From Rhodocyclales bacterium RIFCSPLOWO2_02_FULL_63_24 (GTDB taxonomy: Bacteria > Pseudomonadota > Gammaproteobacteria > Burkholderiales > Rhodocyclaceae): a stretch of DNA of 34,853 nucleotides. Positions 12,129 to 34,853 of the stretch are shown here, one piece after another. Positions within the stretch are counted from its first letter, which is position 1. Every line of letters begins with the position of its first letter. The notes under the pieces were generated by a model, which ran no database searches, was not told the origin of the DNA, and worked only from the letters and a program-made list of their open reading frames with translations. The translations under genes and the position numbers were made by a program. The stretch is from assembly GCA_001828935.1 (NCBI GenBank), contig MHZX01000058.1, positions 1-34,853 of the forward strand, given 5' to 3'.

Positions 12129-12175
12129 TGTGGTTCCTCGTGTTGTTTTGTGAGTCGGCGCTGGTGGGACGGCGA

Positions 12176-12874: not shown

Positions 12875-12885
12875 GAGTCCGCCGC

Positions 12886-13932
12886 TCAACAACAACCCGG
12901 CCTGGCATCCACGGCCGACGCGCCGTCGAACGGCATGACCGTGCCGCAGCCGGCAAAGATGCCGTAGTGGCGCGAGAAGTCGCCATGGAAATCGAAATGT
13001 GGCGCAAAGCGCGATTCCGCCAGCATGCGCCAGGTGTTGCCGCAGACCGGAAACAGCTTGCCCGTCGTCATCTCGTGATGCTTGTCGAGCTTGAAGCGGT
13101 GCGGATGTTCGGCGATGCTGCCGCGATAGGCCACCGCCTGGCCGTAGTCCTCGCAAGCGGGCTCCAGTCCGTCGAGCTTGAACAGCCGCCAGGTGGCGGA
13201 GTGGAAGGCAATGCCGCCGGCGCGGCGCGCCAGCTCGGGGTCGGTGATCTCCAGCGGCCGGTCGGTCACCAGGCGCGCATCGGCAAAACCGCTTTGCCGC
13301 GCCAGGCGCAGGAAGTCGTTCCAGTAGAGCGCGCCGCCCAGGCACTCGCCGTACAGCACCGGGTCGTTGCGCACTGCGTCCGGCACGCGGCGATCGGCAT
13401 AGACGTCGGAGAAGTAGAACTCGCCGCCGGACTTGAGCAGTCGGTGTACGCCGCGCAGCACCGCCTCCTTGTCCGGCGAGAGATTGACGACGCAGTTGGA
13501 GACCACCACGTCGAAGCTGCCCGCGTCGAGGCCGAGTTCGTCCAGGCGTTCGATGTAGCCGAGCTGGAACTCGACGTTCGGCGCGGCGTGGCCGAAGGCG
13601 GCGCTGTGATGGTCGCGATGCTGCGTCGCCACCGCCAGCTGCGCCGCCGTCATATCGACGCCGACGACGCGGCCGGACGGGCCGACGAGCTGCGCCAGCG
13701 CATACACGTCGCGCCCCGAGCCGCAGCCCAGGTCAAGCACGCGGCAGCCGCTCAGCAGTTCCGGGCAGACCAGGCCGCAGCCGTAATAGCGGGCCAGCAC
13801 CTCCGGATGGATGCGCGCCAGCAGCGGCTTGAGCCAGGCCGGCACCGCATCGGCGTCGCAGCAGGCGGAGGTGCGCAGGTCGTCGCTCGACTGCAGCTGA
13901 TTGCCGTAGTAATCCTTGACGAGTTCATGCAT
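12886..13932 (-). CDS. arsM: Arsenite S-adenosylmethionine methyltransferase ArsM
   Basis: This 348-aa SAM-dependent methyltransferase has the class I motif VLDLGCGSGRDVYALAQLVG, motif GRVVGVDMT, and FDVVVSNCVVNLSPDKEAVL, the last containing the conserved arsenic-binding Cys. Further Cys residues lie in TSACCDADAVP and YYGCGLVC, and the chain ends in a Cys pair, all typical of the ArsM type that partners ArsS. It methylates trivalent arsenic; in this setting the product feeds arsenosugar synthesis. AAGGAAG precedes the ATG by eight bases. It follows arsS after 23 bases, in the same operon. Confidence 0.92.
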   Translation of the reverse strand: MHELVKDYYGNQLQSSDDLRTSACCDADAVPAWLKPLLARIHPEVLARYYGCGLVCPELLSGCRVLDLGCGSGRDVYALAQLVGPSGRVVGVDMTAAQLAVATQHRDHHSAAFGHAAPNVEFQLGYIERLDELGLDAGSFDVVVSNCVVNLSPDKEAVLRGVHRLLKSGGEFYFSDVYADRRVPDAVRNDPVLYGECLGGALYWNDFLRLARQSGFADARLVTDRPLEITDPELARRAGGIAFHSATWRLFKLDGLEPACEDYGQAVAYRGSIAEHPHRFKLDKHHEMTTGKLFPVCGNTWRMLAESRFAPHFDFHGDFSRHYGIFAGCGTVMPFDGASAVDARPGCC

Positions 13933-13955
13933 GACGTTTCTTCCTTGACGAAAAT

Positions 13956-14948
13956 TCAGGCAGCGGCTGCTGCGGCGTCTGCCGGCCGCGCGTCGAGCGC
14001 ACCGCCGCAACTGCTGCCCTGCCCGGCGGTGCAGCCATAACAGTGCTCGGCGACGCGGATCGGCAGGCCGTCGAAAGTCCGTTCCAGCAGCGTCGACACA
14101 TGCACCGGCGCGGCGGCATCGCCAAGCGGCAGGCCGAGCATCTGGTTGAAGTCGCAGTCATGGACATGGCCCTGCCAGCTTACGGAGATCAGCGTCTTGC
14201 ACATCACCCCGGCCAGGTTCTCGTCGCGGTGCGCGCCTTTCAGCAGCGCCATGTAGTCGTCAAATTGATTGCGCGAAACGAGCTGACTGCCGAAGCGCTG
14301 GATCGGCATGTTGGCCAAGGCGAACAGGCGATTGAAGACGATGCCGTAGCGGATCGCCAGTTGTTCCTTGTAGGTGGCCTCCAGCGGTTCCTGCGGTGGT
14401 GGCAGGCTCGGTCCGACCGGGTTGTAGACCAGGTTCAGAATCCTGCCGGTGTCCGGCAGGCCATAGCCCAGGGCATTCAGCTTGCGCAGACCGGCCAGGC
14501 TAGCCTCGAAGACGCCGTCGCCGCGCTGGCGGTCGACGTTCTCTTCCAGGTAGCAGGGCAGCGAGGCGACGATCTCGACCGCATTGGCGGCAAGGAAGTC
14601 GGCCAGGTCTTCATGGCCGGGCCCGTTGAGTATCGTCAGGTTGCAGCGATCGATGACGCGCAGCCCCTGGGCGCGGGCGGCCAGCACCAGGCGGCGAAAG
14701 TTCGGGTTCAGTTCGGGCGCGCCGCCGGTCAGGTCCAATGTGGTAGCGCCTTGCCGTTCGGCGAAGCGCAGTAGCGATACCATGGTTTCCCAGGACATCT
14801 CTTCCGTCCGTTTGGGACTGGCGGCGACGTGACAATGGAAACAGGACTGGTTGCAGCGATAGCCAAGATTGGCTTGCAGGGTTTCCAATCGATCACGGCG
14901 CATCGACGGGAAATCCGACTTGAGCAGCAGGGGGGCGGTGTCGCGCAT
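13956..14948 (-). CDS. arsS: Arsenosugar biosynthesis radical SAM protein ArsS
   Basis: This is a 330-aa radical SAM enzyme. The cluster motif is GYRCNQSCFHCHV (CX3CX2C) near residues 31-40, followed by ASPKRTEEMSWE and the TGGAPELNPNF glycine-rich turn. The C-terminal Cys-rich domain has CDFNQMLG, then EHCYGCTAGQGSSCGG. These are the marks of the ArsS/TIGR04167 group, which combines dimethylarsenic with an adenosyl-derived sugar. Some family members are selenoproteins; this one shows Cys codons throughout. The start at 14948 has GGAG seven bases upstream and lies 23 bases after the outward promoter motif. It is the first gene of the arsenic operon. Confidence 0.9.
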   Translation of the reverse strand: MRDTAPLLLKSDFPSMRRDRLETLQANLGYRCNQSCFHCHVAASPKRTEEMSWETMVSLLRFAERQGATTLDLTGGAPELNPNFRRLVLAARAQGLRVIDRCNLTILNGPGHEDLADFLAANAVEIVASLPCYLEENVDRQRGDGVFEASLAGLRKLNALGYGLPDTGRILNLVYNPVGPSLPPPQEPLEATYKEQLAIRYGIVFNRLFALANMPIQRFGSQLVSRNQFDDYMALLKGAHRDENLAGVMCKTLISVSWQGHVHDCDFNQMLGLPLGDAAAPVHVSTLLERTFDGLPIRVAEHCYGCTAGQGSSCGGALDARPADAAAAAA

Positions 14949-14971
14949 GGGGGCTCCGGACGTGTTGCCGA

Positions 14972-15000
14972 TTAGTCGGGCCGCAACGGCATTTCTTACA
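14972..15000 (-). promoter_or_regulatory. Candidate ECF-sigma promoter of the arsS operon
   Basis: Read on the minus strand: TGTAAGAAAT (15000-14991), 11 bases, then CCGACTAA (14979-14972). This gives 16 bases between GTAAGA and GACTAA, a normal ECF -35/-10 distance. The identical two-part motif with identical spacing faces the other way at 15034-15062. Confidence 0.6.
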
Positions 15001-15033
15001 TTTGCCCAAGATCTGGCTGCGCGACGCAAGCCT

Positions 15034-22413: not shown

Positions 22414-22438
22414 GGCGGTTCGAGCAGTTCAAACCGCC
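22414..22438. terminator. Possible hairpin between convergent genes
   Basis: GGCGGTT (22414-22420) and AACCGCC (22432-22438) form a 7-base stem with an 11-base loop overlapping the copA stop codon. GC-rich inverted blocks (GGCGCC at 22380 and 22394) lie just to the left. No T-run follows, so termination is only a possibility. Confidence 0.3.
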
Positions 22439-24786
22439 GCCCGGCGCAGCCGCAGGGCGTTCGTAACCACCGACACGGAACTGAAGCTCATCGCCAGCGC
22501 GGCAATCATTGGCGAGAGCAGCAGGCCGAAGAAGGGGTAGAGCACGCCGGCCGCGATCGGCACGCCCAGCGCGTTGTAGAGGAAGGCGAACACCAGGTTC
22601 TGGCGCATGTTGCGCACGGTGGCGAGCGAGAGCCGGCGGGCGGCTACGATGCCGCGCAGGTCGCCCTTGACCAGCGTGACCTGGGCGCTGTTCATCGCCA
22701 CGTCGGTGCCGGTGCCCATGGCGATGCCGACGTCGGCGCGGGCCAGCGCCGGCGCATCGTTGATGCCGTCGCCGACCATGGCGACGATGCGCCCCTGGGC
22801 CTGGAGGCGGGCCACCAGCGCATCCTTGTCCTGCGGCTTGACCTCGCCATGCACCTCGGCGATGCCGAGCCGGCGGCCGACGGCGCGGGCCGTGGTGAGG
22901 CCGTCGCCGGTGGCCATGATCAGCGTCAGGCCGCTGGCGCGCAGCGCATCCAGCGCTTCCGGCGTGGATTGCTTGATCGGGTCGGAAACCGCGACGAGAC
23001 CGGCCGCGGCGCCGTCGATGGCGAGAAACATCACGCTGGCGCCTTCCTGGCGCAGGGCTTCGGCCTGCGCCGCCAGCGCCTGCCAGGCGACGCTGCCTTC
23101 TTCCATCAGCACCGTGTTGCCCAGCGCGACGGCGCGGCCATCGACCCGGCCGCGCACGCCGATGCCGGAGGCGGACTCGAAGCCCTCGGCCGTGCTCAGC
23201 TTCAAGCCGCGCCGGCGTGCCTCGGCGACGATGCTCTGCGCCAGCGGATGCTCGCTGCCCTGGTCGAGACTGGCGGCGATGCGCAGCACGTCTTCTTCGC
23301 TGCCGCCCGCGCCCGCCGCCACGCCGTGAAAGGCGGGCTTGCCTGCGGTCAGCGTGCCGGTCTTGTCCACGATCAGGGTATCGACCTTGCGCAGGTTCTC
23401 GATCGCCGCCGCATCACGGAACAGCACGCCATGGCTCGCGCCCTTGCCGGTGGCGACCATCACCGACATCGGCGTCGCCAGCCCGAGCGCGCAGGGGCAG
23501 GCGATGATCAGCACGGCCACCGCGTTGATCAGGCCGTAGGCCCAACTCGGCTCGGGGCCGAACAGCCCCCAGCCGAGCAGCGTCGCCAGGGCGACGGCGA
23601 CGACGCCGAGCACGAACCAGCCCGCCACCCGGTCGGCCATGCGCTGCATCGGCGCGCGCGAACGCTGCGCCAGAGCCACCATTTGCACGATTTGCGCCAG
23701 CACCGTCTGCGCGCCGACCTTCTCGGCCCGCATCACCAGCGCGCCGCTGGTGTTGAGCGTGGCGCCGATCAGCGTGTCGCCGGGCAGCTTGCCGACCGGC
23801 ATCGGCTCGCCGGTCAGCATCGATTCGTCCACCGCGCTGTCGCCGGCAAGGACCACGCCGTCCACCGGAATCTTCTCGCCCGGCCGCACGCGCAGCCGGT
23901 CGCCGGGATGCACGTGGGCGAGCGGGATATCCTCTTCGCTGTCATCGCCTTTGTCATCGGTGCGGATGCGCCGCGCGGTCTTCGGCGCCAGACCAAGCAG
24001 GGCCTTGATCGCGGCCCCGGTTGCGGCGCGCGCCTTGAGTTCCAGCACCTGGCCGAGCAGGGTCAGCGCAATGATCACCGCCGCGGCCTCGAAATACACC
24101 GCGACGTGGCCGTCCACGCGGAAGGAGGGCGGGAAGAGGCTGGGCACGACCGTCGCCACCACGCTGTAGAGATAGGCCGCGCCGGTGCCCAGCGCGATCA
24201 GGGTCCACATGTTCGGGCTGCGGTTTTGCAGCGATTGCACGCCGCGCACGAAAAACGGCCAGCCCGACCAGAGCACCACGGGCGTGCCCAGCGCCAGCTC
24301 CATCCAGGGCCGCACGGCGCCCAGCGCGCCGTCGAACAGCCCGCCCGACATGGCGATCAGGGTGACCAGAATGGTCGGCGGCAATGCCCAGCGCAAGCGG
24401 CGGCGGAAGTCGGCCAGCTCGGGGTTCTCGCCCGCTTCCAGTTCAGGCAGCAGCGGCTCCAGCGCCATGCCGCACTTCGGACAGGTGCCGGGGCCGGGCT
24501 GCCTGATGTCGGGATGCATCGGGCAGGTGTATTCCGTGGCCGCAGGAACAGCTTCCTGCGGCGCCGGTGGTGCCAGATAGCGCTGCGGATCGGCCTCGAA
24601 CCTGGCCAGGCACTTGGCGCTGCAAAAGCGGATCAGGCGGCCGTCGTGGGTCGTCGCATGCGCGGAATCCGGTTTCACCGTCATGCCGCAGACGGGGTCC
24701 GTGTCGGCCCCGGCCTGCGCTGCGTGAGCGGTGTGCGCGGACGCCGGGTGAGGGTGTTCAGCGTGAGGGTGTGCCGTGTGGTTCAT
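22429..24786 (-). CDS. copA: Copper-translocating P1B-type ATPase (CopA/SilP-like)
   Basis: The 785-aa inner membrane pump begins with a His-rich tail and a YHS domain (DPVCGM at 30-35, FCSAKC at 54-59), then a heavy-metal-binding domain ([22 protein letters not shown] at about 86-107). The ATPase core carries [10 protein letters not shown], the membrane [11 protein letters not shown] motif for monovalent copper/silver, the phosphorylation site [16 protein letters not shown] and [16 protein letters not shown]. It has no classical GMTCxxC domain, which is usual for this subfamily. It exports Cu(I) or Ag(I) from the cytoplasm. Its start overlaps the methyltransferase stop (ATGA). It ends the operon that begins with the DUF2933 gene. 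Confidence 0.95.
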
Positions 24787-25442
24787 GGTGTCTGCCGTTT
24801 GTCATCAGCCGCATGGAAGCGCGGCAGGAAGGCCGGCGTGCGCGCCCGGTAGTCGCGATAGGCGTCGCCGAACTCCGCCAGGGCGTCCTGCTCCTCGCGT
24901 TTGGCGAGGCGCGCATACACGGCGACCAGGACCGGAAACATCGCCACGGTGGGCAGCGTCGGCCATTGCAAGAGGAAACCGAACATGATGAGGATGAAGG
25001 CCGCGTACTGCGGATGGCGAATGCGCGCGTAGGGGCCGCTGGCCGCCAGGCGATGCTCGCGCTGGGCGTGGAACAGCACGTTCCAGGCGGCAGCCAGCAG
25101 CCAGAAGCCGCCGAAGATGAGAGCGTTGCTGAGCAGGTGGAAGGGGCCGAAGTGCGGATGGTCGCGCCAGCCGAACATCACCTCCAGCAGATGGCCGGCA
25201 TCGTGGGCAAGGAAGTCGACGCCAGGAAAGCGCTGCGCCAGCCAGCCCGAGAGCAGGTAGATGGTCAGCGGAAAACCGTACATCTCGGTAAACAGCGCGA
25301 CGATGAAGGCCGCATACATGCCGAAGCTGCGCCAGTCGCGGGAACTCTTCGGCTTGTAGAAGCTGAAGGCGAACACGATGAACACCGCCGAATTGAGCAG
25401 CACCAGGGTCCACAGGCCATAGGCGGAGGCGTCGCCGCTCAT
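24783..25442 (-). CDS. Isoprenylcysteine carboxyl methyltransferase-like membrane protein
   Basis: The 219-aa protein has about five transmembrane helices and the C-terminal ICMT/PEMT pattern [25 protein letters not shown], then [25 protein letters not shown], which forms the SAM-binding site in the family. Such genes are often found beside copper ATPases in proteobacteria, but the substrate is not known. The start overlaps the stop of the DUF2933 gene by 4 bases, and its stop overlaps the copA start by 4 bases. Confidence 0.85.
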
Positions 25443-25681
25443 TTGTCGTCTCCCGGGGGCGGCTGCTTCCCGTCATGGCCATGCCCGTGGCCGTGGCCGC
25501 CATGCATGAACAAATGCATCAGCGGGCAGGCCAGCAGCAGCAGGAAGGGCAGCACGCCCAGCAAGTGGGCGCGATGCCCGGTCCACAGGTAGAAGGCGGC
25601 AATCACGGCGAAGACGATCCAGGCGATCTTCGCCCGTCCGGCCAGCGGTGGATGCTCGTGGCGATGTTCGTCAGTTTTCAT
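25439..25681 (-). CDS. DUF2933 small membrane protein, His-rich tail
   Basis: This 80-aa protein has two hydrophobic helices ([17 protein letters not shown] and [19 protein letters not shown]) followed by [11 protein letters not shown], a metal-binding His run. The [12 protein letters not shown] pattern is typical of the DUF2933 family that accompanies copper resistance genes. It is the first gene of a three-gene unit with the methyltransferase and copA, all joined by 4-base overlaps. Confidence 0.85.
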
Positions 25682-25749
25682 GCAGCCGTCCCGTCGGCGC
25701 CGACTTTTGTTACGAGGCCGGCATCATCTGTTCAGGTGTTGCCGGTACC

Positions 25750-25796
25750 GTGGCGCCCAAGCCTATTCCCCGGATCAAAACCAATCATGGCGCCAC
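25750..25796. repeat. Inverted repeat between the two copper transcription units
   Basis: GTGGCGCC (25750-25757) and GGCGCCAC (25789-25796) are perfectly complementary, with a 31-base loop. They lie in the 129 bases between the Met-rich gene stop and the DUF2933 start. The repeat could attenuate readthrough or bind a regulator; no T-run follows. Confidence 0.3.
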
Positions 25797-25810
25797 TGTC
25801 GTAGATGACT

Positions 25811-26299
25811 TTACTTGGTCGGTGTGGCGGGACTTCCTTGCGGCATGTTCATCCGGCCCTGCATCATCATCTGCATCATGTCCATGCGCTTTTCCATCAT
25901 CTCCATGCGCTTGCCCATCATCTCATCCGAAGCGGCCGCGCCCTGCCCCATCATGCCCATGCCGCCCTTGCCCATCATGCCCATGCCGCCTTGGCCCATC
26001 ATCGGGCAGTCCATCATGCCACCCATCATGCCCTGCGCCATGCCCATGCTTTCGCGCATGGTCTGCATGTGCTCGGCCATCGCCTTCTGCCGTTCCGCAT
26101 CGGTCTTCGCCTTGGCGATACGGTCGAGTTGCGGCTGCATTTTCTTGACGTTGTCCTGCATCTTCTTGACCTGCGGCGCGATCTGGGCGGGTGCGCCTTT
26201 CGCTTCCGCTGCCTTCTCCGGGTGATGCGCGTCATCGGCAAAAACAGGGGCTGAAAACGCGAGCGCGGCCGCAATGGCTGTCATGGCTATCTTTTTCAT
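25811..26299 (-). CDS. Met-rich periplasmic metal-binding protein
   Basis: This 162-aa protein has a signal peptide (MKKIAMTAIAAALAFSAPVFA) and a charged helical middle (QVKKMQDNVKKMQPQLDRIAKAKTDAERQKAM). A low-complexity segment is built from MGMMGQGG/MGMMGKGG units, then a MEMMEKRMDMMQMMMQGRM helix. Clustered methionines of this sort bind Cu(I) or Ag(I) in the oxidising periplasm. GGAGAG precedes the ATG. It follows the DUF411 gene by 52 bases in the copper-box transcription unit. The specific family is not recognised; copper binding is inferred from composition and context. Confidence 0.8.
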   Translation of the reverse strand: MKKIAMTAIAAALAFSAPVFADDAHHPEKAAEAKGAPAQIAPQVKKMQDNVKKMQPQLDRIAKAKTDAERQKAMAEHMQTMRESMGMAQGMMGGMMDCPMMGQGGMGMMGKGGMGMMGQGAAASDEMMGKRMEMMEKRMDMMQMMMQGRMNMPQGSPATPTK

Positions 26300-26351
26300 G
26301 GTGACTCTCCTTCTTTCAGGTTGAACTCAAATAAGCCGGATGGAGGGGGCT

Positions 26352-26789
26352 TCAGTGGCGGGCGTAGGTGGTGGTGCCACCCTCCTTGCCCACCAGCAGA
26401 ATTTCATACGGGATAGTGCGCGGATCGTCCATGCCGGGCGCGCTGGCCGGCATCCCCGGCGAGACCAGGCCGCGGGCGCGCGGCTTTTCGGCCAGCAGGC
26501 GTTTGACATCGGCGGCGGGCACGTGGCCCTCGATCAGGTAACCGCCGACTTCGGCGGTATGGCAGGAACCCATGGCCGCCGGCACGCCGAGACGGGCCTT
26601 GTGCGCGGCGACGTTTTCGGTGTCATGGGTGACGACCGGGAAACCGCTGGTCTTCATGTGCTCGACCCATTTCCCGCAGCAGCCGCAACCCGGACTCTTG
26701 TACACCGTTACCGTCGGCAAGGGCGCCGCGGCCCAAGTCAGCGGCGCCAGCAGCGAGAGGAAAACGGCGGTTCGGACGGAAGATTTCAT
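26352..26789 (-). CDS. DUF411 metal-binding protein
   Basis: The 145-aa protein has a signal peptide ending in TWAAA and the DUF411 pattern: VTVYKSPGCGCCGKWVEHM (a Cys trio in a thioredoxin-like start), then GVPAAMGSCHTAEVGGYLIEGHVPA, PGMPASAPGMD and a GGTTTYARH end. DUF411 proteins are periplasmic and nearly always lie in copper or cadmium resistance clusters. AGGAG precedes the ATG at 26789. It is the first gene after the copper box and predicted promoter. Confidence 0.9.
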   Translation of the reverse strand: MKSSVRTAVFLSLLAPLTWAAAPLPTVTVYKSPGCGCCGKWVEHMKTSGFPVVTHDTENVAAHKARLGVPAAMGSCHTAEVGGYLIEGHVPAADVKRLLAEKPRARGLVSPGMPASAPGMDDPRTIPYEILLVGKEGGTTTYARH

Positions 26790-26814
26790 TTGCGGCTCCT
26801 TGGTGAAGACAAGC

Positions 26815-26843
26815 TCAGTATGCCCCTTCGACCCCGACGCCAA
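26815..26843 (-). promoter_or_regulatory. Predicted promoter of the copper operon
   Basis: On the minus strand, TTGGCG (26843-26838) and TACTGA (26820-26815) are separated by 17 bases and lie 25 bases before the DUF411 start codon. The match is modest, as expected for a promoter that needs an activator bound just upstream. Confidence 0.5.
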
Positions 26844-26854
26844 GCTGACGCGGA

Positions 26855-26872
26855 GATGACATTTTTGTCATC
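26855..26872. promoter_or_regulatory. CusR-like copper box
   Basis: GATGACATTTTTGTCATC is a perfect palindrome in its 7-base arms with TTTT in the centre. The core TGACA-N4-TGTCA equals the E. coli CusR/PcoR copper-box core. It sits 11 bases upstream of the predicted -35, where a two-component response regulator would activate. The regulator itself is not in the window. Confidence 0.6.
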
Positions 26873-26943
26873 CGCGGCAAGCCATAAATCAAACCACGAA
26901 TCGCGATGTATCGGCTGGCGAAGCCGGGGCTGCCGTCATTCAT

Positions 26944-26966
26944 TCCCGCATCGGCGATGCGCGGGA
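26944..26966. terminator. REP-like hairpin after the electron-transfer operon
   Basis: TCCCGCATC pairs with GATGCGCGGGA across a CGG loop, with a 2-base bulge. It lies 17 bases beyond the cytochrome b stop and before the copper promoter. It may end the operon transcript; there is no T-run, and similar hairpins occur as dispersed intergenic repeats. Confidence 0.4.
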
Positions 26967-26983
26967 CAGGAACGAAAAATCGC

Positions 26984-27796
26984 TCAATATGCGAGCAGGA
27001 ACTGGTTCAGATAGACCAGTGCTTCCATCACTTCGGTAACCACAAGGGCGATGCCGAAGATGATCAGCACGGAGCCGAAGAACGGGTGAGTACGGTTCAA
27101 CCACTGCTCGATCGGGCGCAGCGCGGGCCTTATTTGTTCGTCCCGGTACACCGGATAGGCGGCAATCGTACTTGCATCGACCTTGCGCGGCACCCGCTTG
27201 TGCCCGGTGAACATTGCCAGTACATAGTTTTCCCGATGCAGCCGGGCCGCCCAGAGCACCCCCGTGATGTGGATAGCCACGGCGGCGGCGGTGAGGTGGC
27301 CAAGTACCCTATGCGTTACCTTGAGCATGTCCTCCCAGTCTTCCGACACCAGGAAGCCCAATGGCCCCAGCTGCTGCCCGGAGCTGTACAGCATGATCCC
27401 AACACTGCCGTTGATGAGCATCATGAACAGCAGAGCGAACACCATCCACGAGCCCATGGGGTTATGGCTGACATAGTATCCGGCATGTCCCTGTGCGGCA
27501 CTGCGGGCGTAATCCAGCACTTCTTGCGGCGAGAAAATAAATGAACTGAAGCGGGCGGCGCGGCTGCCGACAACGCCCCATACCAGGCGAAATACCACCA
27601 GGACAAGGACGATGTAGCCGGCATAGGCGTGGATCGGGAATTTCTGGTAGCGCAAATAGATGACGGCAAAAAACAGCACCATCGTCCAGTGGCCCAAGCG
27701 TACGGCGATATCCCAAACCAGAATGATGGGTTCGCGCCGTTTTCTGCGTTCCTCAAGTTCGAGTAGCGGCGTGTCGACCGGACCTTGGTTGGGCAT
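26984..27796 (-). CDS. Membrane cytochrome b (b561/Ni-hydrogenase type)
   Basis: This 270-aa inner membrane protein has four or five helices of the cytochrome b/b6 domain family. Candidate heme-ligand histidines are in AVRLGHWTMVL (helix 1), KFPIHAYAGYIVLV (helix 2), and VTHRVLGHLTAAAVAIHITGVLW (helix 4). A further C-terminal helix follows the basic linker GHKRVPRKVDAST. Such subunits exchange electrons between quinone and periplasmic redox partners. It is the last gene of the five-gene conduit operon, 15 bases after the chemoreceptor. No NapC/CymA-type cytochrome is present, so this protein could be the inner-membrane quinone link. Confidence 0.85.
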   Translation of the reverse strand: MPNQGPVDTPLLELEERRKRREPIILVWDIAVRLGHWTMVLFFAVIYLRYQKFPIHAYAGYIVLVLVVFRLVWGVVGSRAARFSSFIFSPQEVLDYARSAAQGHAGYYVSHNPMGSWMVFALLFMMLINGSVGIMLYSSGQQLGPLGFLVSEDWEDMLKVTHRVLGHLTAAAVAIHITGVLWAARLHRENYVLAMFTGHKRVPRKVDASTIAAYPVYRDEQIRPALRPIEQWLNRTHPFFGSVLIIFGIALVVTEVMEALVYLNQFLLAY

Positions 27797-27811
27797 GTCG
27801 GCGATATGTTG

Positions 27812-29440
27812 TTAGACGGTGAAGCGCCCCATGTCGGACTGGAGATCCCGGGCGAGGCTCGCCAGTTCTCGGGTCGCGACGGTCATGTTTTCGATCAACT
27901 GGGCATTGTCCCTGGCCAGGGCGGCAATCGACTCGACCGATTCTGCCAGATGGGCGCCGGTCGTGCTCTGCTCGCTGGTGGCGTTGCGAATTCCGCCCAT
28001 ACCTTCCGCGACCTTGTCCACAGTTGATGAGGCTTCTTTGAGGATGGTGGTCACCGTGACCATCGAGGCGTGCGTGGACTCCAGTACTGCCAGTCCCTTG
28101 CCGATGGCATCGTTGACCCGTCCGGATTCTGCACCCAGGGAGCGGGTGATGCTGTCGATCTCGCTGGCCGACGCAGAGGATTTCTCGGCAAGTTTGCGAA
28201 CCTCGTCGGCAACCACGGCGAAACCGCGGCCATGCTCACCAGCGCGGGCGGCCTCGATGGCGGCGTTCAAGGCCAGCAGATTGGTTTGATCGGCGATGTC
28301 CTTGACTTGCTGGGTCATGGCCGAAATCGTTGCCGTGCGTTGCAGGAAGCTTTCAACGGAGGACGCAATCTCGCCGACCGATTGTTCGACCTGGCGGATG
28401 CGCTGCTGCAACTCATCCATGTTGCGGGTGCCGGATTCCGTGCTCGTCCGGCTTTCGACGGATAGCTTCTCGACCTTCTGGCACGATTCGGCGACGCCCA
28501 GAACGCTCCCGGCCATTTGTTCGATGGAACTCGCTGCACTGGTCGACTTGCTGGTCTGGGCCGACGATCCGGCGGCGATCTGTTCGCTGGTTTCACTCAG
28601 TTGACTGGCCGACAGCGACACTCTTTCCGCGGTGTGATTGACGGAGACAATCAGGGTCTGCAATTTTTCCATCATGCGATTGAACGAGTCGGACGCGGTA
28701 CCGATTTCGTCACCGCCGTGGACCGGAAGGCGCTGGGTAAGATCGCCTTCGCCTTCCGCAATGGCTTGCAACTGCCGGGTCATGGCGCCAAGCGGGCGCG
28801 TTACGGTGCCCCTGACGAAGAGAAAAATGAAAATCAGCAACGGCCAGGTGATCACATTTGCGACAATAAACAGCTTTGCTTCGGCATTTCGCACCGCCGT
28901 ATCGGCGCCTTCAAGAATGATTTTCATGGAAACAGCGCCGAGGATATCGCCTTCCTTGGCCTCCTCGTGGCACTCCATACAGTTCTTGCCGAGGTAGTTT
29001 TTCGATGCAGTGGCCGGAAAAACAGCACGCAGGACATGGCCCATAGCCGGATCCTGAGTCTCCTGGAACACGATCTTGCCCTCGGCCATTACCTGTTTTT
29101 CCAGCACATCCGGGTTCATCGCGATTTCGTCGCCGTCGCCCATTTCATGGGTGACCTTGTCTCCCCGCAACACGCGCAGGTCGCGCACCGCTTCCGACTG
29201 TCGCACCTGGTCGTAGAACAGGCTGCGTTTCTTGATGGTCTTGGTGACCTTCATGAACAGCAGATTGGCCATGGTAATTTGATGCACGCTGGCCGCCAGG
29301 TCGCGGGCCTGGCTCATCGCCGTCCGCCGTGTCTCGATTGCCGACCAGACCACCATCACGGCCCAGCCGACGATCAGCAGGACCCCGATCACGCCGATCA
29401 GGCGGATCCATATGGGCTTATCACGCAGGCGCAGCGACAT
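27812..29440 (-). CDS. Methyl-accepting chemotaxis protein with periplasmic c-type heme motif
   Basis: This 542-aa receptor has TM1 at about 13-33, a periplasmic sensor to about 178, TM2 at 180-200, a HAMP domain ([30 protein letters not shown]) and a full signalling domain. The hairpin tip reads [40 protein letters not shown]. The sensor resembles the DUF3365/Tll0287-like type and includes NCMECHE, with Cys154, Cys157 and His158 forming a CXXCH heme c site, followed by GDILGAVSM. It is probably a redox or ligand sensor for taxis. It lies between the mtrB-like gene (22 bases) and the cytochrome b gene (15 bases). Confidence 0.92.
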
Positions 29441-29462
29441 GGCTGGAGGGTCCGGTCCGGGT

Positions 29463-31523
29463 TCAGCGGAAGCCGTAATTCACGGACAGGCCGATAAACT
29501 GGACTTTCTCATCCGGATTCTGGTACAGCCATGTGCCATCGGTAAAAACATACGGTTTGCCCGCGCCATTCCAGGTCCAGTCGTTGGTCTTGCGGTGGTC
29601 GTAGATATAGTCAAGGCGGATGCTGGTGTCCTTGTCATAGGCATAGGTGCCGAAGAGTTTCAGCGTGGTCTGGCTGCTGTTGATGTCGGGCAGAGGGGTC
29701 GCCGCACCCGACAGTCCATAGGTGTTCAGATCCTCCGCCCAGAGCAGATCGGCGCCGATCCGGAACTTGGCGCCGAGTTTCCCTTTGACGCCGAAGCCGT
29801 AGTTGATCCCGGTATTCTTCAGGGCGGCCTCGTAATAGGTGGCCGTATTTCTGCCGCTCGCCTGATTGACGCGGGTGGTGAACTGCGCGGCGTAGCCGGT
29901 CAGTGTCCAATTGCTGCCGAGGCTGTAGCTGGCGTCGATGGAATAAAGCTGCGCATCGCCAGCGCGGACACCCACTTCCGGACTGCCGCGGCCACCGTCA
30001 TAGCGATCCCTGGAGTCATCCAGCATGAACTGGAGCGAAAGCGGATCGATCGGCGCCCAGTTGGCAAGAATCTTGACTTTGTTGCGGTCGCGATCGGCGA
30101 TGTAGATCGGATTGACCAGGTTCGACGTTGCATTGACCGGGAAATACCCACCGTTCCTGTTAGCCACAAGGTAGGAGACGGAACCGCTGAGGTCATCCGC
30201 GAGCGCCCTGCCCAGTTCGGCGCGATACGTCGTCTCGGCGGTATTCTCGCGATAGCCGACGACGCGGATACCCTCCTTGCTGCGCAGCTTGCGTTCGTAA
30301 TCGACGCCACCCGTGGCGCGGAAACCCGCGGGAAGCAGATAGCTGGCCTCGAATTTCCCCGAGGTGCTACGCAAGGAGCGGCGCTCGTTTCTGCCGTCCG
30401 ACGATGCGCTCGCCGGGATGTACTGGGCAATCGTGGTCTCGTCGTCGCTGTCCTCATGACGCAGGTTGGCGAGCAGGGAAAGCCCTTTGACCGGGCGCGA
30501 GGTCAAGCCAAGCTGGAGCAGGGTGGTTTCGACGCGGCCGCCGAGATCGGAGCGGCCCGAATCGTTGGTATTCGTGGTTCCCACCGGGGCGACTGCCGCC
30601 GTCGGCGGCAGAATGAATTTGTCGTTCTGCGTGTTAACCGCATACGAGGCCTTGAATGTTCCCCGCGTGGTCCTGGTGAAATCGTAGGCGCCGGCAAGCT
30701 TGAGTTGGTGTGCCAGGTTATCCGGCGGCAGGGCGATCGGATTGTTCAGGTTGGTGCCGGCGAACCCCGCCGAACCGCCGCTAATCGTCAGCGCGGAATT
30801 GTGGTTGTTGTAGAACGAGCCGTAATAACCGCCGCTGAGCTGCAAGCGTTCGCCCAGATAATTCAAGTCGAGGTCGAGCTGGCGGGTGGTGCTGTTGATC
30901 GGCTCGGGGAGAAACTCCCAGGCCCCCGCTCCCGCCGACGAGCCGCGACCAAACAGCCGGCTGCCTTTCTTTTCCTCATTCTGGAAATTGACTCGAAATT
31001 CGAGCTGATGGGTGATTGCCTTGACAAACCCCAGCGTGGTCTTGTCGCGCTCGGTCTTTATCTCGCTTTCGCCTGCCGTGGTCTTGACTCCGCCGGCATT
31101 GGGTACCGTAAGGTTTTGCCCGCCGTTGGGCGATACCGCAGTGAACACATCGTAAGGTGCGTAGCGCGGAATCTGGGTGTAGTCGAGAAAATAGCTCCAA
31201 TCGCCCTGCTTCTCGTGTTCGATCCGGAATTCCCGCGTCGGCAGGCCGAAATCGCGGGCGCTGAAACGCAACCAGGTGCCGCTGGTGTCGTCGAACCGAA
31301 CCACGGATGCTTCGCCGATCAGGTGCTCGCCCGCCTTGGCTGTGCCGTTGTACGTGCCATAGCGCTGGTTGTCGGTATTGACGGTACCGATGCCGATCAC
31401 GATGCTGCTGTCCGGTTTGGTCAGGCGCTCCACGTCGTCGTCGGCCGCGGCCGGCACGGGAAAGATGGCGGTAATCGCCAGGCACAGGAGGGTCCGCTGC
31501 GGTGCTGCCGGAAATTTTTTCAT
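29463..31523 (-). CDS. mtrB: MtrB/PioB-family outer membrane beta-barrel
   Basis: The 686-aa protein has a signal peptide ([27 protein letters not shown]) and a long chain of alternating, aromatic-rich strands ([57 protein letters not shown]), and it ends in GLSVNYGFR, an outer-membrane barrel terminus. It corresponds to the decaheme-associated MtrB/PioB/MtoB family, which sheathes an MtrA-type cytochrome through the outer membrane. The N-terminal CXXC of Shewanella MtrB is absent, and I see no Cys in the mature chain, as in PioB-like members. ATG at 31523 has GAGGAG upstream. It follows the decaheme gene by 15 bases. Confidence 0.88.
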
Positions 31524-31538
31524 GGGCACTCTCCTCGG

Positions 31539-32462
31539 TTAGCGGCGGAAGGTCCGCTCATTGCCGGCGTTTGCCGGATTGTTGGTGCCATGGATATTGG
31601 TATGGCAATTCAAGCAGCCGCGTGCCTGGGTAATGTTCAGTCCGCCGGTGGAGGCGCCCGCAGCGAAACTGGGGAAATTGCCGCGATGACTGCTCGGCTC
31701 ATGGCACTGCTGGCACAGCATCGGCGAGCGCACCTTCAGCAGGTTGTCGGTGGCGGCACCGTGCGGGTTGTGGCAGATGGTGCAATCCTCCGCGGGTTCG
31801 TGCTTGCGCACGAAGGGGCCGCGCTTTTCCATGTGGCAGGTGAAGCAGGTATTGGCGATGCTGTCGCGCGTCATCAGCTTCGGTCCGGCTGAGCCATGCG
31901 AAGCGTGGCAGTCCGAGCAAGCCACCTTGCCTTCCGGCACCGGATGGTGCGACGGCTTGTTGAACAGAACCCGCTGTTCCTTGTGGCAGGTGAAGCAGAC
32001 CTCCGCCTGGGTGCGCTTGTCGCGCACCTTGTCCTTGGCGACATGGAGCTGGTGGCAAGAGGTGCAGGGCACGTCGCGCGCGGCATGGATGCTGCCATTC
32101 CAATCCATGAACTTGCCACCCTTGTGGCAATCGGCGCAGACCTGATTGTGGCCGCCGACGTCATCGGCGGTGCGTTTGCCGTAAGGAAATTCGGGCAAGG
32201 GCCTGATCTTCACGCCTTCCGGTTTGTTGGTATGGGTTTCGCTGTTGCCATGGCAACCGGTGCAGGTCGGCAGCCGCCCATCCACCATCACGCCATGACG
32301 CGTCTTGCCCATTGACAGCACCGGGTAAGACTCGGTTTCGTCATGGCACTTGGTGCATTTCGCATCTCCGGGAAGAATGACATCCTTGCTTGCGGCATGG
32401 ACGGAAAAAACCGTCAATGCCAACGCAAGTCCTGCTAGCCACTTCATTCGAAACCTCATCAT
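31539..32462 (-). CDS. mtrA: Decaheme c-type cytochrome, MtrA/MtoA/PioA family
   Basis: The 307-aa protein has a signal peptide (MKWLAGLALALTVFSVHAA after a short leader) and exactly ten CXXCH motifs: CTKCH, CTGCH, CADCH, CTSCH, CFTCH, CSDCH, CFTCH, CTICH, CQQCH and CLNCH. Distal histidines are spread between them. Length, heme count and the neighbouring barrel gene fit the MtrA family, which carries electrons through the outer membrane inside MtrB. Direction (Fe(II) oxidation inward, or metal reduction outward) cannot be told from sequence. The start is ATG 32462 (AAGG eight bases upstream) or the ATG at 32447. It lies 15 bases after the monoheme cytochrome. Confidence 0.95.
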   Translation of the reverse strand: MMRFRMKWLAGLALALTVFSVHAASKDVILPGDAKCTKCHDETESYPVLSMGKTRHGVMVDGRLPTCTGCHGNSETHTNKPEGVKIRPLPEFPYGKRTADDVGGHNQVCADCHKGGKFMDWNGSIHAARDVPCTSCHQLHVAKDKVRDKRTQAEVCFTCHKEQRVLFNKPSHHPVPEGKVACSDCHASHGSAGPKLMTRDSIANTCFTCHMEKRGPFVRKHEPAEDCTICHNPHGAATDNLLKVRSPMLCQQCHEPSSHRGNFPSFAAGASTGGLNITQARGCLNCHTNIHGTNNPANAGNERTFRR

Positions 32463-32477
32463 CCATTCCGCCTTCGC

Positions 32478-32804
32478 TTATTGGGAAAGTATCCAGTCGA
32501 TTACATCCCTGATCTCGGCCGGGTTCTTGGTTTTCAACTGTTCGTGATCTTCTTCTTTGCCTTCGATCTTTACCTTCGGGCTGGTGGTCAAGTGCGTGGT
32601 GAGTTTTTGGATGGCATCCGCCTTGCCCTTGTATTTGGCAGCAGTTTTCTGGAGAGACGGGCCTTCTTTGTCCTTGCTGATGCCATGGCACTTCAAGCAG
32701 CCGCTTTTCCGCGCCAGAGCTTCAGCCGCCGCCGGGTCGCACCAGGCGGGTCCGGACACAAGCGCGGACAGCGCGGCCGCTATTGAAATTGCGAAGATTC
32801 TCAT
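32478..32804 (-). CDS. Monoheme periplasmic cytochrome c, no Met ligand
   Basis: This 108-aa protein has a signal peptide (MRIFAISIAAALSALVSGPAWC) and a class I cytochrome c start: LARKSGCLKCHGISKDKEGPSLQKTAAKYKGK. Relatives of the c551/c552 type continue with a Met ligand in a MPPN-like loop, but here the chain reads TSPKVKIEGKEEDHEQLKTK and the mature protein contains no Met at all. His residues in TTHL and EDHEQ are possible distal ligands. It heads the conduit operon and is probably the periplasmic shuttle, in the position of MtoD-like proteins. AGGAG precedes the ATG. Confidence 0.88.
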   Translation of the reverse strand: MRIFAISIAAALSALVSGPAWCDPAAAEALARKSGCLKCHGISKDKEGPSLQKTAAKYKGKADAIQKLTTHLTTSPKVKIEGKEEDHEQLKTKNPAEIRDVIDWILSQ

Positions 32805-33275
32805 GGTGCTCTCCTGTTGCCTGTTGCTCTGCATTCCCGTCGCACCGCCGTCCAACTGTGGCCGCCTGCATGCTCAGTCTGGACGCTTGGGACGTACGCG
32901 CCAGCAGCCGGGCCGTTTGGTGATATCAAGCTGCACCAGTCCGACAACAGATGACCGCTCCTGCAACCAATGCTGACGATTGGGATGCATCGTCCGGTGC
33001 CTGAACTTGGATCTGATCAATACGCGTTGCGCTGTGGCGAACATCACGCATCTCGTCCAATTTCGTATGCCTAAAGCAATAAGTGTGCCGAATTTATCGC
33101 AGATGATTCGTCGTGCTATTTTTCGAGCGCTGGCAAAGCAGTAATTTGTATGAGGGTAGCGGCTGGATTTGATGGACAGGAATGCGTTGGAAGCCGATAT
33201 GCCTGTGCAGAAGGGGCATGGAAGCGCGCTTTTGTCGCTCAAAAAGCCATTCCCGAATCTGGCCTTAAATTGTCG
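32805..33275. other. Gene-poor upstream region of the conduit operon
   Basis: No gene is supported in this stretch. It is less GC-rich than the rest of the window, especially 33050-33330. One minus-strand open frame (32874-33242, 122 codons) lacks a ribosome site and recognisable motifs. The stretch should hold the operon promoter; the only candidate I see is the sigma54-like element at 33076-33090, which would leave a leader of about 260 bases. Confidence 0.5.
33076..33090 (-). promoter_or_regulatory. Sigma54-like -24/-12 element
   Basis: On the minus strand, CGGCAC (33090-33085), 5 bases, then TTGC (33079-33076) followed by TT. This keeps the invariant GG and GC at the correct spacing, with a C instead of T at the first position. 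It points at the cytochrome operon. A chance match in ~500 bases is possible. Confidence 0.3.
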
Positions 33276-33307
33276 AAATGGGTTTATCAGCCCTTAAAAC
33301 CCTATTT
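33276..33307. terminator. Possible bidirectional terminator hairpin
   Basis: AAATGGGTTT (33276-33285) pairs with AAACCCTATTT (33297-33307) with a single bulge and an 11-base loop. A-rich and T-rich outer arms give a U-tract in either direction. It could end minus-strand transcripts from the heavy-metal pump unit. Confidence 0.4.
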
Positions 33308-33382
33308 CTGAGAATTATCTTTGCAGTACGTTCTCATTGTTGGGAATTGGCGGATAACGATTTCACCTGAAAACTCAGTTGA

Positions 33383-33516
33383 ACCACGGAGGTACAGAGG
33401 ACACAGAGGAAAAACAAAGCGCCGTGCCGTAATCCCGGATCACCCAACGGGTGAGCAGCGCCTGACCTGCAAGGCGTTGATTCATCGTCTTTCTCTGTGC
33501 CTCTGTGTCTCTGTGG
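33383..33516. repeat. Long imperfect inverted repeat (ACCACAGAGGCACAGAG type)
   Basis: The left arm begins ACCACGGAGGTACAGAGG and continues ACACAGAGG (33383-33409). The right arm (33491-33516) read on the other strand begins ACCACAGAGACACAGAGG. About 80 bases separate them. Such paired arms are a widespread intergenic repeat in many bacterial phyla and often create spurious open frames rich in LCLCVSVV residues. It may be a miniature mobile element; no target duplication is evident. Confidence 0.6.
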
Positions 33517-33581
33517 TGAGGTTTTTAGGATGAATGGAGACGAGCGATTTGGCGTTGTCGATGTCGCCGCAACCGCCTGTA

Positions 33582-34049
33582 TCAGTGCTTGTGGTCCGTA
33601 TGCGCATCCGCTGCGGCGGCGACCGTCTTTGTCACAGCCAGCGGGGTGAAACGCGCCTGTTCGGCGGGCTTGCCCGACATCGTTACCGTGACCACGGCTT
33701 TCAGGTCGGGGGTCGACGCGTACTTGCCGACGCCCTTCAGGCGGTTGTCACCGTCCGGTGCCAGTTTCACGGATGCTTTGGCCTTGCCGCCGAGCAGGGT
33801 TACCGTGCCGCCAGCGCCGACTGTCGAAACTTTCGTTCCGGCATGGTCGGTGACATACACGACGACCGGGTTGTCCTTGGCCTCCTTGCTGTCCCTGGCG
33901 ACGACCAGCTCGAAGTGATAGACGCCGGCCATGCGCAACTGGCCGCCGTTGGGAGTCTTCTGCGTATCCAGGTACTCGTCGCTATGCGCGAGTGCGCCGG
34001 TGCCGGTGAGTATGGCGACAGCGAAGATCAGGGCGTTGAGGGATTTCAT
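33582..34049 (-). CDS. Periplasmic protein with His-rich tail, next to heavy-metal RND pump
   Basis: The 155-aa protein has a signal peptide (MKSLNALIFAVAILTGTGALA) and a mature chain starting HSDEYLDTQKTPNGGQLRMAG. A beta-rich middle (YHFELVVARDSKEAKDNPVVVYVTDHAGTKV, GTVTLLGGKAKASVKLAPDG) follows, with a tail DAHTDHKH. The family is not one I can name, though small His-tailed periplasmic proteins with this HSDEYL...HGGQL-type opening accompany Czc/Cus pumps. GGAGAC precedes the ATG. It lies 29 bases after the pump gene on the same strand. Metal binding is inferred from the histidines and context. Confidence 0.75.
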   Translation of the reverse strand: MKSLNALIFAVAILTGTGALAHSDEYLDTQKTPNGGQLRMAGVYHFELVVARDSKEAKDNPVVVYVTDHAGTKVSTVGAGGTVTLLGGKAKASVKLAPDGDNRLKGVGKYASTPDLKAVVTVTMSGKPAEQARFTPLAVTKTVAAAADAHTDHKH

Positions 34050-34078
34050 TGGATGTCTCCTTGTTTGTTGGATGAAAT

Positions 34079-34853
34079 TCAGAAACTTTCCTTCGACTGG
34101 TCGGCCAGCAGCCGTTCCAGCGAGGGTTTGCCCCACAGCCAGAACATCAGCGGCGTGAGCAGGGTATCGAGCAGGGTGGAACTCACCAGGCCGCCGAAGA
34201 TCACCACGGCCACCGGGTGCAGCACTTCCTTGCCCGGTGCGTCGGCCGAAAGCAGCAACGGCAGCAGGGCGAAGGCGGCCACCAGCGCGGTCATCAGCAC
34301 CGGCGTCAGGCGCTCCAGCGAGCCGCGCACGATCATGTGCTGGCCGAAGCTTTCATTCTCGAAGGCGCACAGGTTGATGTAGTGGCTGATCTTGAGGATG
34401 CCGTTGCGCGTCGCGATGCCGGTCAGCGTGATGAAGCCGACCAGGGCGGCGACGGATAGCGGTTGCCCCGAAATCCACAGCGCGATCACACTGCCGACCA
34501 GCGCCAGCGGGATGTTGCCCATGATGATCAAGGTCAGCGCCATGGAACGATAGCGGCTGTAGAGCACCATGAAAATCATGGTCAGCGACACGGCGGCGAG
34601 CAGCGCGATCAGCTTTGATGCCTGTTCCTGCGCCTGGAACTGGCCTTCCAGAGCCGTGAAATAGCCCTCCGGCAAGGGCTTGGCCGCGAGTTCGGCACGG
34701 ATCTCGGCGATCACCTGCGACATGTCGCGGCCGTCGGTGTTGGCCGAGAGCACGATGCGGCGGCGCGAATTCTCGCGGCTGACCTGGTTGGGGCCGTCGC
34801 TCTCCTCCACCGTCGCTATTTTCGACAAGGGCACGGCGCCGCCCGGCGTCTCG
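34079..34853 (-). CDS. Heavy-metal RND efflux permease, C-terminal part (CzcA/CusA family)
   Basis: About 258 C-terminal residues are present; the rest lies beyond the window. Visible marks are GGAVPLSKIATVEESDGPNQVSRENSRRR, typical of CzcA/CusA pumps, then transmembrane segments (LIALLAAVSLTMIFMVLYSRYRS, NIPLALVGSVIALWISG, LVGFITLTGIATRNGILKISHY) and the final MTALVAAFALLPLLL and LVSSTLLDTLLTPLMFWLWG helices. These pumps export divalent (Czc) or monovalent (Cus) metals across both membranes. The metal-site residues are outside the window, so the metal is undetermined. No start is present because the frame runs to the edge. Confidence 0.93.
   Translation of the reverse strand, partial: ETPGGAVPLSKIATVEESDGPNQVSRENSRRRIVLSANTDGRDMSQVIAEIRAELAAKPLPEGYFTALEGQFQAQEQASKLIALLAAVSLTMIFMVLYSRYRSMALTLIIMGNIPLALVGSVIALWISGQPLSVAALVGFITLTGIATRNGILKISHYINLCAFENESFGQHMIVRGSLERLTPVLMTALVAAFALLPLLLSADAPGKEVLHPVAVVIFGGLVSSTLLDTLLTPLMFWLWGKPSLERLLADQSKESF

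What the first reader, a model, noticed from the sequence alone, without database searches (positions are those of the whole stretch)
26984..32804. Five-gene extracellular electron conduit operon with built-in chemoreceptor and cytochrome b
Genes for a monoheme cytochrome c, decaheme MtrA-type cytochrome, MtrB/PioB barrel, heme-bearing chemoreceptor and membrane cytochrome b follow each other with gaps of 15, 15, 22 and 15 bases. Known Mtr/Mto/Pio clusters pair MtrA and MtrB with an outer surface cytochrome or HiPIP and often a CymA-type quinol dehydrogenase. Here no CymA or surface decaheme is visible; a cytochrome b and a taxis receptor occupy the operon instead. I infer a module joining outer-membrane electron exchange, quinone contact and taxis toward the redox partner.
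Basis: partly seen in the sequence, partly recalled or inferred. Interest (0 to 1): 0.75.

Follow-up and report, generated by a model that had tools for sequence, protein, structure and literature searches.

The report
Electron conduit operon with heme chemoreceptor
A bacterial gene set for passing electrons through the outer membrane carries its own heme-bearing chemotaxis receptor and a membrane cytochrome b, and several relatives keep this company, which suggests (but does not prove) that cells steer by the same wire they respire with.

Summary
In detail: five minus-strand genes, gaps 15/15/22/15, encode an MtoD-like monoheme cytochrome c, a 10-heme MtrA, an MtrB barrel, a chemoreceptor with a periplasmic CXXCH, and a cytochrome b561/FdnI-type protein. 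The full order recurs in five other genomes (MtrB 43-51%, receptor sensor 58-63% identical). In a 395-genome sample of the family the receptor's subfamily stands apart by score (16 genomes, >=318 bits; next 220); 15 of 16 start within 3.2 kb of an mtrA, against 1 of 134 other printed relatives within 10 kb. On a 56-row tree 19 of 20 members of one starred clade adjoin mtrAB, in three gene orders; the 32 unlinked sensor proteins outside it show no mtr hit in the stretches fetched (six cut close to an end). Cytochrome b and a CymA/NapC-type gene never co-occur at 80 MtrA loci (9 and 26), so cytochrome b probably fills the CymA slot. Best reading: a porin-cytochrome conduit with its own quinone module and a dedicated redox chemoreceptor; my searches found no report of this partnership. 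Co-transcription, direction, substrate and stimulus are untested. Against: one orphan receptor in a genome with no MtrA found, Aromatoleum-type clusters with no quinone module beside them, and MtoD not binding MtoA in Sideroxydans.

The parts
32478..32804 (-). periplasmic monoheme cytochrome c, MtoD-like (108 aa, one CXXCH)
   Evidence: PF00034; best PDB match 4xxl_A, E 1.1e-24, residues 6-107; His of EEDHE kept in all 14 aligned sequences, window included
31539..32462 (-). MtrA/MtoA/DmsE-type decaheme cytochrome (307 aa, 10 CXXCH)
   Evidence: TIGR03508 249.5 bits over cut-off; 6r2q_A E 2e-61; 10 motifs counted
29463..31523 (-). MtrB/PioB outer-membrane barrel (686 aa)
   Evidence: PF11854 458.6 bits, TIGR03509 336.1 bits, over cut-offs; 6r2q_B E 4.4e-18
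27812..29440 (-). chemoreceptor: membrane helix, periplasmic sensor with CXXCH, membrane helix, HAMP, MCP signalling domain (542 aa)
   Evidence: PF00672 and PF00015; sensor alignment with invariant C-x-E-C-H; clade of mtr-linked receptors; helices from the sensor model
28967..28981 (-). CMECH heme c attachment motif of the receptor (residues 154-158)
   Evidence: translation and alignment A2; CXXCH found in every sensor row checked for the trees
26984..27796 (-). integral-membrane cytochrome b561/FdnI type (270 aa) with a C-terminal helix beyond the Pfam domain; invariant His 36, 56, 111, 162, 176, 187, of which 36, 56, 162, 176 are my candidate heme ligands
   Evidence: PF01292 residues 27-198; alignment A1 of 8 sequences; model mean pLDDT 76, top fold match 1kqf_C, weak by E-value
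26981..26997 (-). terminator-like hairpin at the 3' end of cyt b
   Evidence: pattern scan; 10 such sites in 26300-33600, both strands, against 7.3 +/- 2.8 in shuffles, so weak

Best explanation
The operon encodes a porin-cytochrome electron conduit with its own inner-membrane quinone module and its own redox chemoreceptor. MtrA inside MtrB carries electrons across the outer membrane; the monoheme cytochrome c shuttles them in the periplasm; the FdnI-like cytochrome b exchanges them with the quinone pool, in the place that CymA or MtoC takes elsewhere. The c-heme in the receptor's periplasmic domain is reduced or oxidised by the same periplasmic cytochromes (or by the potential or ligand they face), and the change passes through HAMP to CheA, so that swimming is tied to whether the conduit has a usable partner outside. 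Shown here: gene content, order, conservation, the receptor lineage's close attachment to mtrAB, retention of the heme motif, CheW-domain and flagellin genes in the genome. Inferred: co-transcription, heme loading, quinone activity, electron contact between conduit and receptor, and the tactic output.
For: Five-gene order in 6 genomes incl. the window. Receptor subfamily: 16 of 395 sampled family genomes at 318 bits or more, next 220; 15 of 16 near an MtrA versus 1 of 134 other printed matches, 44 of those 134 in genomes with a printed MtrA (Fisher 1.6e-18, not corrected for shared ancestry). Tree: clade 100/99 of 20 rows, 19 beside mtrAB, in three gene orders. MtrA of window and L180-L184 forms one clade, 100/99. 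Cyt b and CymA/NapC exclusive: 9 and 26 of 80 loci, overlap 0, hypergeometric 0.023 uncorrected; again no overlap in 16 further stretches, some of them the same loci refetched. 1kqf_C (FdnI) is the top fold match of the cyt b model. 12 CheW-domain and 3 flagellin matches in the own genome. Print: Geobacter c-heme receptors GSU0582/GSU0935 (PMC8396549, passages); Shewanella needs mtrBC/omcA, cymA and an MCP to gather at minerals (PMC5789149, passages).
Against: No transcript, redox or taxis data. One subfamily member (G753:C76, L314) has no mtr hit in the stretch fetched, and G753 is not among the 108 genomes with an MtrA match. In the 40 regions fetched around MtrA matches of relatives the receptor-cyt b pair is not beside mtrAB, and no congener has a close copy of the cyt b (best 112 bits against 602 for self), so the pair is dispensable to such conduits. 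L302-L308, L310, L325 have the receptor but no cyt b or CymA-type hit. In Sideroxydans MtoD does not bind MtoA or ImoA; PmcA does (PMC13390432, abstract and passages), so MtoD likeness does not prove a shuttle role. The FdnI fold match has E 0.063. The profile was built from linked receptors, so part of the score gap is by construction. No promoter-like site was found (0, 2.6 expected).
Confidence: 0.58

Rival explanations
1. The receptor is co-regulated with the conduit but senses a dissolved signal (O2, NO, sulfide or bulk potential) through its heme, not the conduit's electrons; linkage reflects shared conditions of use.
For: Characterised c-heme receptors respond to redox potential, oxygen or bind CO/NO (DcrA, GSU0582/GSU0935, PMC8396549 passages); most relatives of this sensor have no MtrA nearby (133 of 134 other printed matches have no printed MtrA within 10 kb).
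Against: The mtr-linked receptors form their own clade and the link persists through three gene orders; the own genome's paralogue on C133 is not linked.
Confidence: 0.27
2. The receptor does not steer swimming; it feeds a Che-like or c-di-GMP route for attachment or pili at the mineral surface.
For: In L180, L182 and L184 a GGDEF-EAL protein with a related c-heme sensor lies about 3-4 kb upstream of the operon on the other strand (Pfam; L183 has the same sensor, its output domains not scanned); a CHASE histidine kinase lies between in L180 and L182. The own genome has CheW-domain matches on five contigs.
Against: The signalling domain is of ordinary MCP type (PF00015); flagellin genes are present; no GGDEF-EAL gene was identified among the window genes that I scanned (not every ORF was scanned).
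Confidence: 0.1
3. Passenger linkage: receptor and cyt b ride with mtrAB on a moving segment and serve other pathways.
For: Flanks of the window (copper and RND efflux genes) differ from those of L180-L184; regions fetched from congeners lack the pair beside mtrAB.
Against: Persistence at 43-63% protein identity, clade-wide linkage, cyt b-CymA exclusion; the sensor has no match in the plasmid collection.
Confidence: 0.05

Closest known systems
Mto cluster of Sideroxydans lithotrophicus ES-1 (mtoA, mtoB, mtoD, cymA/imoA)
   Same: MtrA-type decaheme, MtrB-type barrel and MtoD-like monoheme cytochrome (cluster as described in PMC4412085, passages)
   Different: CymA/ImoA place taken by a cytochrome b; receptor inside the operon; the word chemotaxis does not occur in PMC13390432 (find)
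mtoABCD of Dechloromonas aromatica; CbcL/MtoC/MtrH family (PMC6295460 and PMC5566968, passages)
   Same: betaproteobacterial conduit with a quinone protein other than CymA
   Different: that family is described as multiheme c cytochromes; here the protein has no CXXCH. That CbcL also holds a b-type domain is recalled, not tested
Gallionellaceae sp. KS mto with Cytbc, a b561 domain fused to a diheme c (PMC5566968 passage)
   Same: b561-type membrane protein proposed as the quinone-active part near mto
   Different: fused and in a separate downstream operon; no receptor mentioned (chemotaxis 0 occurrences)
Geobacter GSU0582/GSU0935 and Desulfovibrio DcrA c-heme chemoreceptors (PMC8396549, passages)
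   Same: periplasmic domain with c heme, membrane helices, HAMP and MCP domain
   Different: no PDB chain matched significantly by the sensor profile, and 3b42/3b47 not among the 50 best fold matches printed; no link to mtrAB in the passages seen
Shewanella congregation / EET-dependent energy taxis (PMC5789149, passages; also PMC2886065, title and abstract start only)
   Same: conduit and a chemoreceptor needed together for gathering at minerals
   Different: in the passages seen the receptor SO_2240 is a Cache-domain MCP, not described as heme-bearing or as part of the mtr cluster

Membership tests
MtrAB/MtoAB porin-cytochrome conduit | decaheme MtrA-type cytochrome over curated cut-off with 10 CXXCH | tested here: met
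   TIGR03508 249.5 vs 192.2 bits; 10 motifs; 6r2q_A
MtrAB/MtoAB porin-cytochrome conduit | MtrB/PioB barrel encoded next to it | tested here: met
   PF11854 and TIGR03509 over cut-offs, 15-base gap
MtrCAB (metal reduction type) | outer-surface OmcA/MtrC-family decaheme | tested here: not met
   no second multiheme ORF in the window; TIGR03507 finds none in the 90.8%-complete draft
Mto pathway (mtoABD-cymA) | MtoD-type monoheme cytochrome | tested here: met
   4xxl_A E 1.1e-24; PmcA, a second Sideroxydans monoheme, was not compared
Mto pathway (mtoABD-cymA) | CymA/NapC-type tetraheme in the cluster | tested here: not met
   no match in the window; three PF03264 matches elsewhere in the genome
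Mto pathway (mtoABD-cymA) | Fe(II)-dependent electron uptake | not testable with these tools
   needs physiology
c-heme chemoreceptors (general) | CXXCH in the periplasmic sensor, HAMP, MCP signalling domain | tested here: met
c-heme chemoreceptors (general) | heme actually bound | not testable with these tools
   needs protein
GSU0582/GSU0935 sensor family | sequence or fold match to the solved heme PAS-like domains | tested here: not met
   no significant PDB match of the sensor profile; printed top 50 fold matches hold WalK, CitA and other Cache/PAS sensors; the solved domains are swapped dimers (PMC8396549 passage), so a monomer search may miss them
b561/FdnI cytochrome b (PF01292) | family score over gathering cut-off | tested here: met
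   64.2 vs 30.1 bits
b561/FdnI cytochrome b (PF01292) | four His heme ligands | tested here: inconclusive
   His 36, 56, 162, 176 among six invariant His in 8 sequences; equivalence to FdnI ligands is recalled, not computed
CbcL/MtoC/MtrH | multiheme c cytochrome | tested here: not met
   no CXXCH in the 270-aa protein

The most novel reading that the evidence does not exclude
A dedicated chemoreceptor lineage has become a working part of the Mtr/Mto conduit: its periplasmic c heme is wired to the conduit's cytochromes, so the cell measures electron flow to or from the outside solid directly and navigates by it. This would be a built-in electrotaxis unit, and the gathering of these receptors in one mtrAB-bound clade would be its evolutionary mark.
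Probability: 0.42. Interest if true: 0.82.

Novelty: new variant of a known kind. Interest (0 to 1): 0.63.

Why it matters
How electroactive bacteria find a solid or electrode is open: in Shewanella conduit and receptor are both needed (PMC5789149, passages), but I saw no sign there that the genes are tied. Here the tie is in the genome and has lasted, so 'does a receptor read the conduit?' becomes a two-gene experiment in named Aromatoleum/Azoarcus strains. The receptor subfamily is also a marker for finding taxis-coupled conduits, and the cytochrome b adds a plausible alternative to CymA/MtoC as quinone module.

Tried and rejected
Close relatives as proof of synteny: rejected. 40 regions around MtrA matches in relatives of the window (genus, family, order; several on short contigs) show the cytc-MtrA-MtrB core often, but no receptor sensor hit; only L053 (another family) has a cyt b hit beside MtrA, with an MCP signal-domain hit about 3.4 kb beyond it; L031-L033 have short weak hits to the first 63 residues of the signalling part.

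Cyt b as a marker by itself: relatives of it occur in 237 of 399 order genomes; none of the 12 fetched regions L151-L162 nor the own paralogue region L170 shows an MtrA or MtrB hit.

Own-genome heme receptor paralogue (C133, L163): no mtr hit in its 12.3-kb contig, outside the mtr-linked clade.

DMSO/iodate (DmsEF) reading: the decaheme model is named DmsE family, but the five genes hold no molybdopterin subunit; not pursued.

Sensor fold: model pLDDT 77; one match below E 0.001 (9a5d_A, a WalK model), no heme sensor recognised by name in the printed 50. VIA-align library not on hand.

Plasmid origin: sensor has no match in the plasmid collection.

Wider spread: of 284 genomes of the class (own included) none but the own reached the subfamily's score range; next are the own paralogue at 206 and G867 at 198 bits. 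The order scan (399 genomes) used one sequence and held 13 genomes of the family, own included.

Limits of counts: L181's truncated receptor is in no tree; tree rows needed a sensor hit over 450 bases; 5 of the 32 unlinked tree rows (L142, L146, L164, L166, L316) show no MCP signalling hit and six (L145, L163, L316-L319) are cut less than 3.3 kb from an end; the 1-of-134 count uses only rows printed, both capped; the 80 MtrA loci are the best 80 of 232 and some are cut by contig ends; cyt b at those loci was sought only by likeness to the window's (E 1e-5). L183's upstream sensor protein was not domain-scanned.
Full report
WHAT IS THERE. Five minus-strand genes fill 26984-32804 with gaps of 15, 15, 22 and 15 bases: a 108-aa monoheme cytochrome c, a 307-aa decaheme cytochrome, a 686-aa MtrB/PioB barrel, a 542-aa chemoreceptor and a 270-aa cytochrome b. 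Family scores: TIGR03508 249.5 bits (cut-off 192.2), PF11854 458.6 and TIGR03509 336.1 bits (cut-offs 23 and 240.05), HAMP 58.8 and MCPsignal 121.4 bits, PF01292 64.2 bits. MtrA has 10 CXXCH. PDB sequence matches: MtoD 4xxl_A (E 1.1e-24), 6r2q_A (2e-61) for MtrA and 6r2q_B (4.4e-18) for MtrB; the cytochrome b has none up to E 1, and the sensor only integrin membrane helices at E 0.16 and above. A terminator-like hairpin lies at the end of cytochrome b, but such sites are near chance frequency and no sigma-70-like promoter was seen.

ORGANISM. The window lies in a 4.3-Mb, 147-contig, 90.8%-complete draft. One congener (G027) has a contig of the same length and an identical MtrA to a record labelled Sulfuritalea sp., so the genus probably contains Sulfuritalea-labelled bins; this is inference. 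The genome has one MtrA match, no OmcA/MtrC-family match, three NapC/CymA-type matches on other contigs, 12 CheW-domain matches and 3 flagellin matches.

SYNTENY. Of 61 genomes (own and relatives) 26 have MtrA; in 40 regions fetched from relatives the cytc-MtrA-MtrB core is common, but receptor plus cytochrome b is not beside it. A scan of the named species genomes with MtrA confirmed 232 relatives, of which the best 80 were kept. The full order cytc-mtrA-mtrB-receptor-cytb is in L180, L182, L183 (uncultured Dechloromonas) and L184; L181 has it with inner parts missing; in L191 the receptor is divergent upstream and cyt b downstream; in L205, L206, L207, L214, L216 the receptor is upstream; L190, L219, L224 have cyt b downstream but no receptor hit. 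The family scan added a further full copy, L315/G545, on a 4.2-Mb contig. From mtrA on, gaps in the copies are short too, as far as starts can be guessed.

THE RECEPTOR SUBFAMILY. A profile of eight mtr-linked sensors (A2) was run on 395 sampled genomes of the family: 254 have a match, but 16 genomes stand apart at 318-374 bits, the next match at 220. Since the profile was built from linked receptors, some separation is by construction; adjacency is not. Using the rows printed, 15 of 16 subfamily members and 1 of 134 others are within 10 kb of an MtrA; 44 of the 134 are in genomes with a printed MtrA. The exception G753 is not among the 108 of 395 genomes with an MtrA match. The one linked outsider, G474, falls inside the linked clade on a tree of 56 sensors: clade 100/99 with 20 rows (12 receptor-upstream, 6 five-gene, G474, orphan G753); outside lie 32 unlinked sensor proteins (27 with an MCP signalling hit) and 4 upstream sensors of the five-gene loci (first tree of 42 rows). 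G474 is a long branch, so its place is less sure. CXXCH was found in every row checked. In the MtrA tree of 115 rows the window and L180-L184 form a clade 100/99, and with L191 and four Aromatoleum/Azoarcus a clade 100/95; L214's MtrA lies elsewhere (bootstrap not fully settled). So receptor and conduit have largely descended together, with at least one likely change of partner.

CYTOCHROME B. Tblastn of the own genome's NapC/CymA genes finds such a gene at 26 of the 80 MtrA loci; cytochrome b is at 9; none has both (hypergeometric 0.023, no correction for ancestry). In the 16 later stretches (seven judged from contig length to be loci already counted) cyt b is in 5, NapC in 1, both in none. 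Six His are invariant among eight sequences; I take 36, 56, 162 and 176 as heme ligands by recalled likeness to FdnI. The model (pLDDT 76) has 1kqf_C, FdnI, as top fold match (probability 1.00, TM 0.47/0.57, E 0.063). I read it as the quinone-facing part, in CymA's place.

NEIGHBOURS. In the window the operon sits between copper and RND efflux genes. In L180, L182 and L184, whose neighbours were scanned in part, there are upstream a GGDEF-EAL protein on the other strand with a related c-heme sensor (all three), a c7-type triheme cytochrome (scanned in L182, L184) and a CHASE histidine kinase (scanned in L180, L182), and downstream a hemerythrin (all three). L183 has the same sensor and shares several BLAST clusters. 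So the five genes keep together while the window's flanks differ from these relatives'.

MECHANISM AND LIMITS. See Best explanation. Steps shown: genes, order, conservation, lineage linkage, heme motif. Steps inferred: one transcript, heme insertion, quinone chemistry, electron contact of receptor and conduit, taxis. Direction and substrate cannot be told. A caution from print: in Sideroxydans, MtoD (+155 mV) binds neither MtoA nor ImoA, PmcA (about -143 mV) binds both (PMC13390432, abstract and passages); I did not compare PmcA, so the window's monoheme may be either in function.

LITERATURE. Seen as abstracts and passages only: PMC8396549, PMC6295460, PMC8805035, PMC5566968, PMC5789149, PMC7399161, PMC10654088, PMC4412085, PMC10734462, PMC13390432. 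'Chemotaxis' has no occurrence in PMC6295460, PMC8805035, PMC5566968, PMC7399161, PMC10654088 and PMC13390432; PMC10734462 counts c-heme MCP clusters but the passages shown do not place them beside mto. Searches showed no title or abstract start describing mtrAB with a chemoreceptor gene; lists were capped (for example 20 of 82, 12 of 77, 10 of 56) and the library is open-access only, so this is not proof of absence.

VERDICT. Observation confirmed, interpretation partly supported and strengthened. New variant of a known kind; interest 0.63.

Noticed in passing
window 22429-26786 and 33582-34834: Copper P-type ATPase, a Met/His-rich protein and a DUF411 protein on one side and the end of a CusA/CzcA-type RND pump on the other flank the operon.
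   Followed up: partly
window 9053-15029: Oxidoreductase/SelD fusion (TIGR03169 522 bits) and an ArsS arsenosugar radical SAM protein (TIGR04167 435 bits) hint at selenium/arsenic genes.
   Followed up: no
L180:2789-5254, L182:2751-5270, L184:3722-6295; L183 from 2790: GGDEF-EAL proteins (Pfam in three; L183 not scanned) with a related c-heme periplasmic sensor upstream of the same conduit operon, other strand: a possible c-di-GMP arm of the same signalling.
   Followed up: partly
L181 6091-9524: Azonexaceae bin with the operon order but inner parts of MtrB, receptor and cyt b missing: decay or misassembly.
   Followed up: no
L315 10123-15712: Several more c-type cytochrome ORFs (3, 3, 1, 4, 4 CXXCH) directly after the five-gene operon in G545.
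   Followed up: no
L138 6351-9451: An unlinked heme receptor of G424 has a cyt b561-type hit (33%) about 1 kb upstream with no mtr hit in the stretch: receptor and cyt b may also pair without a conduit.
   Followed up: no
L185: A metagenome bin titled Bordetella parapertussis carries an mtr cluster with a CymA-type gene, its MtrA among betaproteobacterial ones; the title looks like a misassignment.
   Followed up: no
L220 10001-13520: Nitrosomonas sp. Nm33 shows a second partial MtrA/MtrB piece inside the cluster, a possible duplication remnant.
   Followed up: no
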